NCBI GenBank assembly: GCA_900313925.1
Contig: OMTF01000012.1
Span: 44,508 to 108,507 of the forward strand
DNA length: 64,000 nt
DNA from: an uncultured Eubacteriales bacterium
GTDB lineage: Bacteria > Bacillota > Clostridia > Oscillospirales > Oscillospiraceae
Direction: 5' to 3'
Part shown: positions 60,156 through 64,000 of the stretch, piece after piece
How the letters are laid out: each line of letters opens with the position of its first letter
Numbering within the stretch: position 1 is the first letter of the stretch
Notes under the pieces: generated by a model
Seen by the model: only the letters and a program-made list of their open reading frames with translations
Database searches by the model: none
What the model was told of the DNA's origin: nothing
Program-made: the position numbers and the translations under genes

Positions 60156-60468
60156 CCGCCGGACGGCGGCGGAGGGAGCACGCGGCACTGCCAATTCCTT
60201 TACATAAAAAAATGTCGTAAGTTCAACAAATAGATGCAAATTAAAAAAGAGCGTCCGAAATGGGCGCAAAAGCGCTCTGCTGTTGAAAAAACTGTGGAAA
60301 CAGTGGAAAACACGGCTCGGTCTGCTTTCCTATGAGTTGACATAACAGGATAAATCGGAGGAAAAGAAACTAAAAGTGGTGAAACAGGACCGATGTGAAC
60401 CGCAAAAACGCGCAAAGGTGGTGGCATAAGGAATATATTACACAGAATTGAGGAAAATCGGAAACGGG
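60156..60468. other. Upstream region of the adhesin gene
   Basis: AT-rich, no gene. TTGACA at 60334-60339 could be a -35 box but no good -10 follows at 17 nt. GAGCG(TCC)/GCGCTC pairing near 60250 and 60278 is the only notable structure. No c-di-GMP aptamer motif was found. Confidence 0.3.
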
Positions 60469-62790
60469 ATGAGAACGAACCGACGGAAAAGTCAGAAAGA
60501 GAGGAAATTGTTGCGGAAAACAGGATATATCATTCGCAGGCCGGCCGCATTGGTGCTGGCTTTTTTCATGCTTCTGGGCGCCTTGGCCGGCACGGCGGCA
60601 GCTGCCGAGCCGACGGACGGATTTCAGCTGACGCAGGGGGAGGGGAACCTGGGCGGTGCCTATGAATTCCACGCCTATTCCGACAGCGCCTCGGGGGGCG
60701 CAGTCTACTGCCTGGATATCTGGAAGTCGATTAAACCGGTGCCCATGAAGGGATGCGGCCGGCTTATCGATCAGGACGTTTCAGGCGCGGATGTCCGCGC
60801 CATGGCTTACGTGCTCTACCACGGATACCACCCCGGGGTCGGTTCCATTGCGGGCTTTGCCGGAACGGAAAGTCAGCTTTACGAGCTTACGCAGTGCGCC
60901 CTCTGGACGCTTACAGCGGCAGCGGAAGGCGGCACGTACGATCTGAAGGAGATGCGCTACTGCTCGGATCATATTTCCCTTCCTGCGGAACAGGAAGCGT
61001 GCAGCCGGCTTGTGGATCGGGCCCTTGCATTTTCTGCCGGCAATCCAAACACCGATGCGCCGGAACTGGAGCGCACATTTGTCTACGCTGCGGCAAACGA
61101 TCCGGAGCAGGCCTATCAGCGCATGGCCGAGGCATTTCCCGTTCGGGGAGACTTCTCCCTGCATAAAACGGATTCCGAAACGGGATCGGCCATGGCGGGC
61201 GTGCACTTTCGTCTGACGCGAAGTGCTACCGGCGAAAGCGTGGAATTTGCGACCGACGCGGAAGGAAACTACAGTTCCGCGTCGAATTACCGTTCCCACA
61301 GCGCCCCGGACGGCCTTTGGATCGGATCGGAGGACGACCCCTCGGATGCCTGGGGAGCGCTGCCGCCGGGGGAATATACGCTGGAGGAACTGCCGACGGC
61401 GGGTGTCAATGACGGCTACGAACTGTACCGGGGAAGTTTCCGCATCGCGGCGGAACAGACGCAGGTGGAGCTTTCCGTCGTAAACCGCAGAACGCCTGCA
61501 CTGCAGACGGCGCTGCACGGCGCCGGCGGGGAAAAATATATTTTCGCAGGTCCCGATACGGAACTTACGGACACCGTCCGCTGCGTCGGTCTTGACGACT
61601 GCATCGGAATGGAGCTTCGGCTGTGCGGGCAGCTTTACGATTCCGAGTCGGGCGCACTGCTGAGCGAAGCCGAAACGGTCTTTACCCCGGAGGCGGGAAC
61701 GGGAACCGTAGAGCAGAGCTTCCGACTTGACGCTTCCAAACTTTCCGGTCGCAGCGTGACGGCCGTGGAAAGCCTCTACTGCGGACAGAATAAGATCGCA
61801 GAGCATCGGGATTTTTCCGACGCAGCCCAGACGGTGCAGTTTCCGTCGCTTCACACGACAGCGTCCGACGCTGCGTCCGGGAGCCGCCTTGTCTGCGGAG
61901 CCGGTTCCATTCAGCTGACGGATACGGTCCTCTGCAGGAATCTGGAACCAGGAAAGACCTACACCCTGACGGCGGCACTGATGGACGTCGAGACCGGAGA
62001 ACCCATTCGTGACGCGGAAGGGAAAGCCGTGCAGGCCGAGCGGGAAGTGACCTGCCCCGACGACAGCACGGAATGCACAGCGGAGGTTCTGCTCCGATTT
62101 GAGGCGGCCGCAGATCTGCCCGGAAAGACTGCCGTGATTTTTGAAGGGCTTACAGCGGACGGTGTTTTGTATGCCTCGGAAGCCGATCTGCAGGAAGCAG
62201 AGCAGACCGTCCGGTTTCCGGGTCTCCGATCTTCGGCCGCGGATCGTTCCGACGGCGACCGTATTCTGCCGGCCTCCGGCACGGTTTGCATTCAGGAAAC
62301 CGTATACTACGCGAACCTGGAGCCCGGTGCGTCGTATACGCTGGAAACGCAGCTTACGGACAGCCGTACCGGAGAGGAGATCCGCCTCGCGGACGGAACC
62401 TTTGCCGTGAAGCGGACGTTTTCTCCGGAAGCTTCGGAGGGATCGATGGAAATCCTCCTTCCTGCCGCTGCGGAAGCGCTGCCGGATACGGTGCTTGTTA
62501 CGGACCGGCTTTACGATGCCGGCGGCCGCTGCCTTGCCGTGCATGCGGAGGCAGCAAACTCCGATCAGACCCTGCGAAAAGAAAGCGGAACTCCGCCGGA
62601 CACAGGCGATGAGAGCGGCCGGGGGCGGGCGCTGACATTCGGATGCACAGCGCTCGCCGCAGGCGTTTTCCTGTTCTTTGCGGCACGGAAGAAACACGCC
62701 GCCGACTCAGCGGAAGCGTCCGAGGGGGAACTGCGGCCGTCCGGGAAAAAAATACCTCGCCCCGTTGACAGCACCGAAGGAAAGGACTAA
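60469..62790 (+). CDS. Surface adhesin: thioester domain, Cna-B domain, three VaFE repeats, sortase-like tail
   Basis: 773 aa. Signal peptide with hydrophobic core LVLAFFMLLGALAGTAAAA. Thioester (TQXA) domain: Cys81 in VYCLDIW and Gln142 in ELTQCALW would form the internal thioester used to bind host amines covalently. Cna-B domain about 227-335 (HKTDSETGSAMAGVHF, GEYTLEELP). Three VaFE-type repeats at about 342-460, 460-583 and 583-703, each with a TDTV/QETV strand. The end has PPDTGD (709-714) instead of LPXTG, a membrane segment (721-741) and a long hydrophilic tail. ATG 60469 is preferred over TTG 60448. Confidence 0.85.
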   Translation: MRTNRRKSQKERKLLRKTGYIIRRPAALVLAFFMLLGALAGTAAAAEPTDGFQLTQGEGNLGGAYEFHAYSDSASGGAVYCLDIWKSIKPVPMKGCGRLIDQDVSGADVRAMAYVLYHGYHPGVGSIAGFAGTESQLYELTQCALWTLTAAAEGGTYDLKEMRYCSDHISLPAEQEACSRLVDRALAFSAGNPNTDAPELERTFVYAAANDPEQAYQRMAEAFPVRGDFSLHKTDSETGSAMAGVHFRLTRSATGESVEFATDAEGNYSSASNYRSHSAPDGLWIGSEDDPSDAWGALPPGEYTLEELPTAGVNDGYELYRGSFRIAAEQTQVELSVVNRRTPALQTALHGAGGEKYIFAGPDTELTDTVRCVGLDDCIGMELRLCGQLYDSESGALLSEAETVFTPEAGTGTVEQSFRLDASKLSGRSVTAVESLYCGQNKIAEHRDFSDAAQTVQFPSLHTTASDAASGSRLVCGAGSIQLTDTVLCRNLEPGKTYTLTAALMDVETGEPIRDAEGKAVQAEREVTCPDDSTECTAEVLLRFEAAADLPGKTAVIFEGLTADGVLYASEADLQEAEQTVRFPGLRSSAADRSDGDRILPASGTVCIQETVYYANLEPGASYTLETQLTDSRTGEEIRLADGTFAVKRTFSPEASEGSMEILLPAAAEALPDTVLVTDRLYDAGGRCLAVHAEAANSDQTLRKESGTPPDTGDESGRGRALTFGCTALAAGVFLFFAARKKHAADSAEASEGELRPSGKKIPRPVDSTEGKD

Positions 62791-62793: not shown

Positions 62794-62804
62794 GAAAGAC
62801 GACA

Positions 62805-62881
62805 AGGGGAGCTCGGAAGGGCTGAGAGGAAGCATGGCTTCGACCTTTACCTGATCTGGATAATGCCAGCGTAGGAAAGAA
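62805..62881 (+). promoter_or_regulatory. TPP riboswitch (THI-box)
   Basis: All hallmarks of the thiamine pyrophosphate aptamer: 5' GGGGAGC (62806-62812), GGCTGAGAGG (62820-62829), P3a GAAGC/GCTTC, CGACC, and the pyrophosphate arm CTGATCTGGATAATGCCAG (62851-62869) followed by CGTAGG. Binding of TPP stabilises the aptamer and favours the terminator just downstream. Confidence 0.97.
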
Positions 62882-62890
62882 GCGTTTCAC

Positions 62891-62912
62891 ACCGCCCCCT
62901 TGGGCGGTTTTT
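62891..62912 (+). terminator. Terminator of the TPP riboswitch
   Basis: ACCGCCC/GGGCGGT stem, CCCT loop, TTTTTCC; 10 nt after the aptamer, as expected for a transcriptional OFF switch. Confidence 0.9.
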
Positions 62913-63000
62913 CCTTTCCCCTGTACAATTCCATAACTTCCGCAGCGGCGCTTCGGCGCAGCGCATGGAGGGGGAGCGCCCTGCGTGCGGCGAGGGAAGG

Positions 63001-63110
63001 ATTCAGCGATGGGAGACCATGTTCTGGCCTGAGAGGAAACCAGCAAGTTTCGACCGGCATTCAAAGGGCCTGTGTGCCCGGAATGGACCGGAAGGTGCGC
63101 TGAAGCGAAG
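63001..63110 (+). promoter_or_regulatory. Second, half thi-box-like RNA element upstream of thiW
   Basis: GGGAG (63011-63015), GGCCTGAGAGG (63026-63036), P3a GAAAC/GTTTC (63036-63040/63047-63051) and CGACC (63051-63055) match the first TPP aptamer in order and spacing. The CTGATCTGGATAATGCCAG arm is absent. Instead, a hairpin CCGG-CATTC-AAA-GGGC / GCCC-GGAATG-GA-CCGG occupies 63054-63091. By inference this RNA could recognise a thiamine-related ligand without the pyrophosphate contact. Not a known class to my knowledge. Confidence 0.55.
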
Positions 63111-63140
63111 CCAACCGGCCCAGAAGGAGGTTGGTTTTTT
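63111..63140 (+). terminator. Terminator overlapping the thiW ribosome binding site
   Basis: CCAACC (63111-63116) pairs with GGTTGG (63129-63134), followed by T6 directly before the ATG. AAGGAGG (63124-63130) lies inside the hairpin, so it can act by termination or by RBS masking. Confidence 0.7.
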
Positions 63141-63704
63141 ATGGATAATCCGGCAAAGAATACCGCGGCGCCGATCGAGGCGCCGGCAGAAACCCTTCGG
63201 ACGGAACATCGGTTCGGCGTGCGCCGACTGACGCTGACCGCAATGTTCACAGCCCTCGCGTTTGTTCTGAGTACCTTTGTGTACTTTCCGCACATGGCCC
63301 CATTCCAGCATTTCGTAGATGTGCTGGCGGAAGTCTTCGTCGGTCCCTGGTACGCCTTCGCGGCGGCGCTGATGACCGGCCTGCTGCGCATGGCCTGCGG
63401 GCGGGACATCGGATGTGTTGTCGGCGCCATATTCGGCCCGATCATCGGCGGGCTATGGTACAGAAAAACACACAAGTTCTGGTCCGCCTGGGCTGGGGAG
63501 GTCATCGGTACCGGCTTTGTCGGGGCGATGACAGCCTATCCGCTGTTCAAGACATTCTACGGTCTGGACGCGCAGTCACCGTTTTACTATGTGCCGTTCT
63601 ATACCCCGTCCGCGGCCGTGGGAGCTGCCCTGGGCGTTGCGGTGCTTGCCGGTCTGAAGAAAGCCGGCGTTTTCGAGAAACTCTGGCATCAGGTCAATCC
63701 CTGA
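63141..63704 (+). CDS. thiW: ThiW-type ECF S component (thiamine precursor uptake)
   Basis: 187 aa with about five membrane segments after a charged 30-residue N-terminus. FTALAFVLSTFVYFPHMAP, QHFVDVLAEVFVGPWYA, MTGLLRMACG, LWYRKTHKFW and EVIGTGFVGAMTAYPLFK match the ThiW family, proposed from genome context to import a thiamine precursor (thiazole) with a shared ECF module. Regulated by the TPP riboswitch and, by inference, the second thi-like element. AAGGAGG 10 nt before ATG. Confidence 0.9.
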   Translation: MDNPAKNTAAPIEAPAETLRTEHRFGVRRLTLTAMFTALAFVLSTFVYFPHMAPFQHFVDVLAEVFVGPWYAFAAALMTGLLRMACGRDIGCVVGAIFGPIIGGLWYRKTHKFWSAWAGEVIGTGFVGAMTAYPLFKTFYGLDAQSPFYYVPFYTPSAAVGAALGVAVLAGLKKAGVFEKLWHQVNP

Positions 63705-63750: not shown

Positions 63751-64000
63751 GTATGACGGGCATGCCGTCAGTCTGTGGTGAAAATCCACAAGGGGCGTAG
63801 TTGCCGACGAACCCCATAGCAACTCCCAAGGTTTGCACCGTGAGGGGCAGGCGAGAGGAAGGGATAGCGAAATCGTAACCTGACGAACAGGAACCTGATA
63901 CAAGGCGCGCTTGGCGGATGAGCTGGCTAAGGACAGCAAAGTCCCAAAGGCAACCGTAACCCAAGGGCGTAAATCAGGCAGGCAGACGAGGAAAGACTGA
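63751..64000 (+). mobile_element. Group IIC intron, 5' end (domain I), runs off the window
   Basis: Starts GTATG at 63751, four bases after the U-run of the thiW terminator; group IIC introns insert just behind terminator hairpins. Intron-like blocks: ACGGGCATGCCGT stem, CAGTCTGTGGTGAAAATCC, GGATGAGCTGGC near 63916, CAAAGTCC near 63938 and GGAAAGACTG at the edge. These correspond in order to domain I of the Oceanobacillus iheyensis IIC intron. The reverse transcriptase gene and domains V/VI would lie to the right. The 5' GTATG differs from the usual GTGYG. Confidence 0.85.

What the first reader, a model, noticed from the sequence alone, without database searches (positions are those of the whole stretch)
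62805..63140. TPP riboswitch followed by a half thi-box with its own terminator ahead of thiW
The second element repeats the pyrimidine-sensing side of the TPP aptamer (GGGAG, GGCCTGAGAGG, P3a, CGACC) but replaces the pyrophosphate arm with an unrelated 13-bp interrupted hairpin. In TPP aptamers the TGAGA turn binds the HMP ring and the CTGATCTGGATAATGCCAG arm binds the phosphates. An element with only the first could sense HMP, thiamine or another precursor, fitting a gene for precursor uptake. Together the two would give two-input control. The second terminator contains the Shine-Dalgarno sequence, so the second switch might act on transcription and translation.
Basis: partly seen in the sequence, partly recalled or inferred. 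Interest (0 to 1): 0.82.

Follow-up and report, generated by a model that had tools for sequence, protein, structure and literature searches.

The report
Half-TPP riboswitch guarding thiazole salvage
A conserved RNA element, found here ahead of genes that salvage the thiazole half of vitamin B1, has the sequence and helices of the arm that grips the pyrimidine ring in the known vitamin-B1 (TPP) riboswitch but lacks the arm that grips its phosphates, so it likely is a second, separate metabolite switch whose ligand is still unknown.

Summary
Confirmed, and larger than reported. The window has a TPP riboswitch (62795-62894) with its terminator, then a second element (62958-63105) ahead of thiW. 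Rfam has no related match (E<=10), yet the element is a conserved RNA: in 17 thiW leaders, the window's included, 97.5% of cells pair and 16 of 21 pairs change on both sides. The element keeps the TPP aptamer's pyrimidine arm; the P4/P5 phosphate-arm signature follows it in 0 of 117. In 107 elements tested, one strand can pair with an aptamer strand or with a downstream pyrimidine strand, both better than shuffled partners: a conserved two-state platform. I infer an OFF switch for a pyrimidine-bearing thiamin compound other than TPP, probably thiamin or TMP; a second HMP-PP switch is the main rival. Ligand, direction and binding are untested, and the window's copy is divergent. It differs in architecture from the published HMP-PP (thiS) riboswitch that occupies the same place elsewhere.

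The parts
62795..62894 (+). TPP riboswitch aptamer (first switch)
   Evidence: RF00059 57.9 bits, above gathering score
62892..62912 (+). intrinsic terminator of the TPP riboswitch, CCGCCC/GGGCGG plus T5
   Evidence: sequence; fold
62962..62989 (+). P0 hairpin with loop GGAGCG (62973-62978) and a 1x1 G.G internal loop
63002..63008 (+). P1 5' strand TTCAGCG
   Evidence: pairs with 63098-63104; best P1 stem in 145 distinct elements 6.92 bp against 5.78 for shuffled strands
63011..63055 (+). TPP-like pyrimidine arm: P2 (63012-63013/63054-63055), P3 (63016-63019/63025-63028) with loop TGTTC, TGAGA (63030-63034), P3a (63036-63040/63047-63051), CGACC
   Evidence: P3 and P3a covary; the 12 weak hits of model R1 that were checked are TPP aptamers
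63058..63085 (+). variable P4 hairpin in place of the TPP P4/P5 arm
   Evidence: fold; TPP P4/P5 signature present after the element in 0 of 117 relatives
63098..63104 (+). P1 3' strand CGCTGAA
63107..63138 (+). second terminator / SD-sequestering hairpin GAAGCCAACC...GGTTGGTTTT
   Evidence: fold; sequence
63141..63704 (+). thiW, substrate-binding component of an ECF transporter
   Evidence: TIGR02359 114.1 bits; PF09512 117.3 bits

Best explanation
The second element is a conserved leader RNA with the pyrimidine arm of a TPP aptamer and without its phosphate arm, and it likely works as a separate OFF riboswitch that would bind a pyrimidine-bearing thiamin compound other than TPP (probably thiamin or TMP) and would shut down thiazole uptake and phosphorylation. 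Shown here: the conserved sequence, the covarying helices P0, P1, P3 and P3a, the missing P4/P5 arm, the thiW/thiM association and the strand competition in the platform of relatives. Inferred: descent from a TPP aptamer; that the kept TGAGA turn still holds the pyrimidine; that the folded aptamer (P1 plus P4) frees the downstream pyrimidine strand to cover the ribosome-binding site, or in this window lets the terminator that contains that site form. Speculative: that the P0 loop (GAGC) docks on the P3 loop (GTTY) in the role of the lost arm.
For: 17 leaders: 97.5% of 357 cells paired, 16 of 21 pairs with changes on both sides, 0 of 500 shuffles reach it, slid versions 29-47% paired. Of 145 distinct elements 142 could be parsed; in them and in 35 representatives below 85% identity P3 and P3a keep 97-100% standard pairs per position with two or more pair types. 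In 46 places found by the model (the 30 best and the 16 of 53 bits or more; the window and the TPP-aptamer hits L114-L125 left out; 10 of the 46 were in the model): TGTT 46, TGAGA 46, GCGA(N)GGGA 45, CGACC 43, GGAGCG 42. In TPP aptamers the P2/P3 arm holds the pyrimidine and P4/P5 the pyrophosphate (PMC4775224, passages). The 12 weaker R1 matches checked are TPP aptamers. Next gene: 105 thiW and 5 thiM, starting within 500 nt, of 110 decidable; 7 of 117 cut short (ten proteins checked with NCBIfam). Platform, 107 of 145 distinct elements: P4 score 12.71 against 11.20 (sd 0.23), alternative helix P5 16.91 against 13.75 (sd 0.29) for shuffled partners, 0 of 200 shuffles as high. The ribosome site is less open with the aptamer closed than with P5, 0.41 against 0.52; 38 lower, 9 higher of 87. 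Of 40 chosen carriers 40 have ThiM, 17 ThiC and 4 a full-length ThiG.
Against: No binding data. With the linker shuffled the ribosome site is just as covered in the aptamer state (0.412 against 0.406; 22 lower, 19 higher of 87), so a specific anti-SD pairing is not shown. 38 of 145 distinct elements lack AGCG or a P1 of 5 bp and were left out of the platform test; the P1 search ran over 150 nt and picked places inside the gene in some. The window's copy is divergent: A.C at the base of P3, C instead of G before TGAGA (G in 137 of 142), no clear P5; its free RNA prefers another fold (-54.4) to P1 plus terminator (-53.3) or the full aptamer (-45.5 kcal/mol, without ligand), and P3 has a mean probability of 0.0005 in the free ensemble. 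Its direction therefore rests on relatives. Shuffles ignore relatedness. The GAGC/GTTY contact has no covariation.
Confidence: 0.45

Rival explanations
1. It is a second class of HMP-PP (or HMP, HMP-P) riboswitch and turns thiW/thiM on when the pyrimidine co-substrate is abundant, as the published thiS motif does ahead of thiW elsewhere.
For: Same place after a TPP riboswitch and ahead of thiW as the tested C. lundense tandem (PMC6478431, passages and section 6); same pathway logic; pyrimidine arm kept; most carriers checked lack thiazole synthesis.
Against: The platform leans to OFF (modest); 23 of 40 carriers lack ThiC, though HMP can also be salvaged; 16 of 109 elements stand without a TPP switch just upstream.
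Confidence: 0.3
2. It senses the thiazole side (HET or HET-P) or another signal, or is bound by a protein; the likeness to the TPP arm is inherited scaffold only.
For: 110 of 110 decidable next genes are thiW or thiM, the thiazole branch; P0 is a conserved module that the TPP aptamer lacks.
Against: TGAGA, part of the arm that holds the pyrimidine in TPP aptamers, is kept in 46 of 46 model-found places; that the thiazole ring is hardly contacted in TPP structures is recalled.
Confidence: 0.18
3. It is a decayed second TPP riboswitch left over from a tandem TPP pair.
For: Tandem TPP riboswitches are common (213 representatives in PMC9481103, section 21) and occur in related loci such as L028, L115 and L117.
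Against: Covariation in 17 leaders; P0 loop GGGAGCG, which was no part of the search pattern, in 128 of 142 elements from genomes of four classes of Bacillota; two conserved parts that TPP aptamers lack, P0 and the P5 strand.
Confidence: 0.02

Closest known systems
TPP riboswitch (RF00059)
   Same: P2-P3-P3a arm with TGAGA turn and CGACC; position in thiamin gene leaders; closing helix P1
   Different: no P4/P5 phosphate arm; added 5' hairpin P0 with GGAGCG loop; TGTTY loop on a 4-bp P3; GGGA where the window's own TPP aptamer has GGGG; not found by the Rfam model at E<=10 in the window
HMP-PP riboswitch (thiS motif), PMC6478431
   Same: follows a TPP riboswitch and its terminator, precedes thiW, thiazole branch of the pathway
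   Different: the published one is a compact terminator-embedded hairpin with a conserved loop and an ON switch; the conserved part here is about 145 nt with P0, P1, P2, P3, P3a and P4, outside the terminator. Figures are not held, so the letters could not be compared; hairpins in L053, L055-L057 and L004-L006 that I take for the thiS motif (inferred) do not resemble P0 by eye
TPP-class variants said to prefer thiamin or TMP (Breaker laboratory, unpublished, cited in PMC9481103, section 21 and a reference-list passage)
   Same: change of ligand within the TPP architecture, mentioned for tandem arrangements
   Different: those are RNAs that still classify as TPP riboswitches; this element does not

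Membership tests
TPP riboswitch RF00059 | reaches the family's gathering score | tested here: not met
   no TPP match in 62960-63160 at E<=10
TPP riboswitch RF00059 | pyrimidine arm P2/P3 with TGAGA turn | tested here: met
   sequence 63011-63055; 12 of 12 weak model hits checked are TPP aptamers
TPP riboswitch RF00059 | pyrophosphate arm P4/P5 (CTGAT...TAATxCC) | tested here: not met
   absent in the window; present within 110 nt in 0 of 117 relatives
TPP riboswitch RF00059 | binds TPP | not testable with these tools
   needs in-line probing or SHAPE
HMP-PP riboswitch (thiS motif) | aptamer embedded in one terminator hairpin | tested here: not met
   the conserved part runs from P0 to P1, 62958-63105, outside the hairpin 63107-63138
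HMP-PP riboswitch (thiS motif) | consensus letters of the terminator loop | tested here: inconclusive
   the consensus is in a figure that is not held; five short strings were not found in the text
HMP-PP riboswitch (thiS motif) | association with thiazole-branch genes | tested here: met
   thiW 105, thiM 5 of 110 decidable
riboswitch in general | conserved aptamer-like fold plus mutually exclusive platform helices | tested here: met
   relatives; not clear in the window's own platform
riboswitch in general | direct ligand binding that changes expression | not testable with these tools
   no experiment

The most novel reading that the evidence does not exclude
A widespread, uncatalogued riboswitch class of Bacillota made by cutting the TPP aptamer in half and fitting a new docking hairpin in place of the phosphate arm, so that an ancient coenzyme aptamer was re-aimed at another thiamin-pathway compound and now guards thiazole salvage, usually as the second gate behind an intact TPP riboswitch.
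Probability: 0.65. Interest if true: 0.85.

Novelty: new variant of a known kind. Interest (0 to 1): 0.8.

Why it matters
It would be a natural case of an aptamer losing half of its ligand grip and keeping the other, which makes the evolution of riboswitch specificity directly testable: add a P4/P5 arm to the element in the test tube and compare ligands. It would add a second input to the control of vitamin B1 salvage in bacteria of which most checked (36 of 40) have no full-length thiazole synthase match, and would extend the picture begun with the HMP-PP riboswitch at the same gene. It also shows that related leaders can escape Rfam's TPP model.

Tried and rejected
Rfam search of the element at E<=10: two matches, MIAT_exon1 and MIR7991, both far below their gathering scores and taken as chance. 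Folding energy alone does not mark the element (z -1.71). I asked whether the element is the published thiS motif: the architecture differs, and letters could not be compared. [quoted passage not shown] PMC4005666, passages), and what is kept here is the ligand-side arm. First-pass gene calls gave 25 of 109 frames without a ThiW match; many looked like out-of-frame readings over thiW, so genes were re-called with two profiles, thiW and thiM. The thiM profile was made from five of the tested proteins themselves, later confirmed as hydroxyethylthiazole kinases. L025 was dropped from the model alignment because of a long P3a insert. Letters imposed by my own patterns cannot count as conserved in those sets; conservation counts come from model hits, which are themselves the better-scoring ones and partly in the model. 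In 14 of 142 parsed elements the exact P0 loop string GGGAGCG was not found and they are left out of the P0 table. In one search the upstream stretches of minus-strand loci were taken from the wrong strand; corrected from then on. For ThiG, 25 of 40 carriers had some match and 20 were over the Pfam cut-off, but only four (G353, G559, G092, G276) are full-length; the others cover part of the profile, the window's genome only positions 162-205; I do not count those as ThiG. Literature searches, listings only, in which I saw no description of the element: (open-licence PMC; lists capped, for instance 30 of 2,754). PMC11109978, PMC8632094 and PMC12452182 were searched for thiamin terms (passages), without a matching motif.

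Full report
What is there. The window ends with a thiW leader and gene. A TPP aptamer over Rfam's gathering score (62795-62894, 57.9 bits) is followed by its terminator (62892-62912). Then, before thiW (63141-63704; TIGR02359), comes a second structured element. Rfam has nothing related for it at E<=10.

Is it real. I took thiW loci from relatives of the window's genome (74 of 198 genomes with a match, 35 over the family cut-off) plus five fetched stretches. Eighteen loci including the window carry the same letters in the same order before thiW. Seventeen of them (L025 dropped for an insert) gave alignment A2 and model R1. Of 357 cells 97.5% are standard pairs; 16 of 21 pairs change on both sides; no shuffle of 500 matches this, and sliding the partners by one to three columns drops pairing to 29-47%. 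The helices are P0 (62962-62989), P2, P3 and P3a. P2's two pairs never vary and so say nothing. Of 145 distinct elements 142 could be parsed; in these and in 35 representatives below 85% identity P3 and P3a pair at 97-100% per position, and P0 (in the 128, or 31, that hold its loop string) at 95-100% and 87-100%, with two or more pair types except at P0's innermost pair.

P1 and the platform. The strand before GGGA (CAGCG and its variable outer letters) pairs with a strand after the hairpin (CGCTG and complementary outer letters). In 145 distinct elements the best such stem within 150 nt averages 6.92 bp, against 5.78 (sd 0.09, highest 6.01 of 200) when 5' strands are dealt to other elements; some of the picks lie inside the gene and are surely wrong. 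In 107 elements with AGCG and a P1 of 5 bp or more, the strand just before P1's 3' half can pair backwards (P4, for example CTTCC/GGAAG) or forwards (P5, for example GGAAGCG/CGTTTCC). Both exceed shuffled partners (12.71 against 11.20, sd 0.23; 16.91 against 13.75, sd 0.29; none of 200 shuffles as high), and in examples the three strands change together (L199 TTCTCA / TGAGAACG / CGTTCTCA; L216 TTCCG / CGGAAACGT / GCGTTTCCG). That is what a two-state switch looks like. These shuffles do not allow for relatedness. The window's own copy shows no clear P5.

Relation to TPP. The 12 weaker matches of R1 that I checked (L114-L125, 34.5-41.8 bits) all overlap an RF00059 match. In 46 places found by R1 (the 30 loci and the 16 of 53 bits or more, window left out; 10 of the 46 were in the model) TGAGA is kept in 46, TGTT in 46, GCGA(N)GGGA in 45, CGACC in 43 and the P0 loop GGAGCG in 42. 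The TPP P4/P5 signature appears within 110 nt after the element in 0 of 117 pattern hits. In TPP aptamers the P2/P3 arm touches the pyrimidine ring and P4/P5 the pyrophosphate (PMC4775224, passages).

Where it occurs. With R1: 51 matches of 76 bits or more in 50 of 400 genomes of the window's family; 18 of 391 genomes of its class at 53 bits or more; both counts include the window's genome. Of two profiles, thiW and thiM, the first to match downstream is thiW in 105 and thiM in 5, always within 500 nt; in 7 the contig or stored stretch ends within 343 nt and nothing can be said. Ten of these proteins were checked with NCBIfam: five thiM, five thiW. Of 109 with room upstream, 78 have a TPP signature by my pattern and 15 more an Rfam TPP aptamer just upstream; 16 have none there at the gathering score. 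It therefore is mostly, but not always, the second of two switches.

Who carries it. I chose 40 carriers that are at least 90% complete. All have ThiM; 17 have ThiC (one only in part); four have a full-length ThiG match of over 300 bits, while partial matches put 20 over the Pfam cut-off. Most thus depend on thiazole salvage. The window's genome has ThiM twice, no ThiC and only a partial ThiG match.

How it likely works. When the aptamer is closed (P1, P4), the strand downstream of P1 is free; when P5 forms it is tied up. Folding 87 leaders in both states gives a mean unpaired fraction of the ribosome site of 0.406 with the aptamer closed and 0.524 with P5; 38 are lower and 9 higher with the aptamer closed. 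This points to an OFF switch. Against a specific anti-SD pairing: with the linker shuffled the value is 0.412. In the window the platform is different: the hairpin 63107-63138 contains the SD and runs into T6, so it can stop transcription or block translation. P1 plus this hairpin (-53.3) and a rearranged fold without either (-54.4) are nearly equal in energy, while forcing the full aptamer costs more (-45.5, without ligand or tertiary contacts). The full aptamer and the terminator are compatible in that fold, so a ligand that favours the aptamer would go with the terminator: again OFF, inferred.

Ligand. The arm that survives would hold a pyrimidine; the arm for the diphosphate is gone. An OFF switch ahead of thiazole uptake and phosphorylation would make sense for thiamin or TMP, which make thiazole import needless. 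Breaker's laboratory mentions unpublished TPP-class variants that favour thiamin or TMP (PMC9481103, section 21 and a reference-list passage). An ON switch for HMP-PP, as published for another RNA ahead of thiW (PMC6478431, passages and section 6), is the main rival. I cannot decide between them by sequence.

Novelty. The window's element matches no Rfam 15 family, and in the listings of eight searches of open-licence papers I saw no description. That does not prove it is unpublished: subscription papers and supplements were not searched, and the hairpins that I take for the published thiS motif have no Rfam match either (L053, L055-L057).

Noticed in passing
window 63834-63998: Group II intron domains (RF02001, 117.5 bits) begin about 130 bases after thiW, close to the window's end.
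   Followed up: no
window 60448-62790: Large surface protein with thioester (TED), SpaA and three T-Q ester (VaFE) stretches directly upstream of the leader.
   Followed up: no
L002 1501-1608, minus strand: The genome's other TPP-like aptamer (51.4 bits, below the gathering score) precedes an ORF that looks like thiD (by eye, recalled motif).
   Followed up: no
L053, L055, L056, L057; L004, L005, L006: thiW leaders without this element carry a hairpin with CACCACCnnnGGTG, followed by a T-run in several, presumably the published thiS (HMP-PP) motif.
   Followed up: partly
L135, L136, L159, L214: Compact members put the P1 3' strand directly against the Shine-Dalgarno sequence (CGAAAAGAGG type), a shorter platform than in the window's family.
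   Followed up: partly
element loci, P0 region and P3 loop: GAGC (anywhere in the 95 nt before the core) and GTTY in the P3 loop could pair; both present in 144 of 145 distinct elements, but GTT was part of the search pattern and there is no covariation.
   Followed up: partly
G001, G002 against G000: The two same-genus genomes searched have no ThiW match, so the thiW locus is patchy within the genus.
   Followed up: no
L157, about 376-560: In this leader the half element is followed, as well as preceded, by a TPP-aptamer-like sequence.
   Followed up: no
L028, L115, L117: Pairs of tandem TPP aptamers in related thiamin-gene leaders.
   Followed up: no
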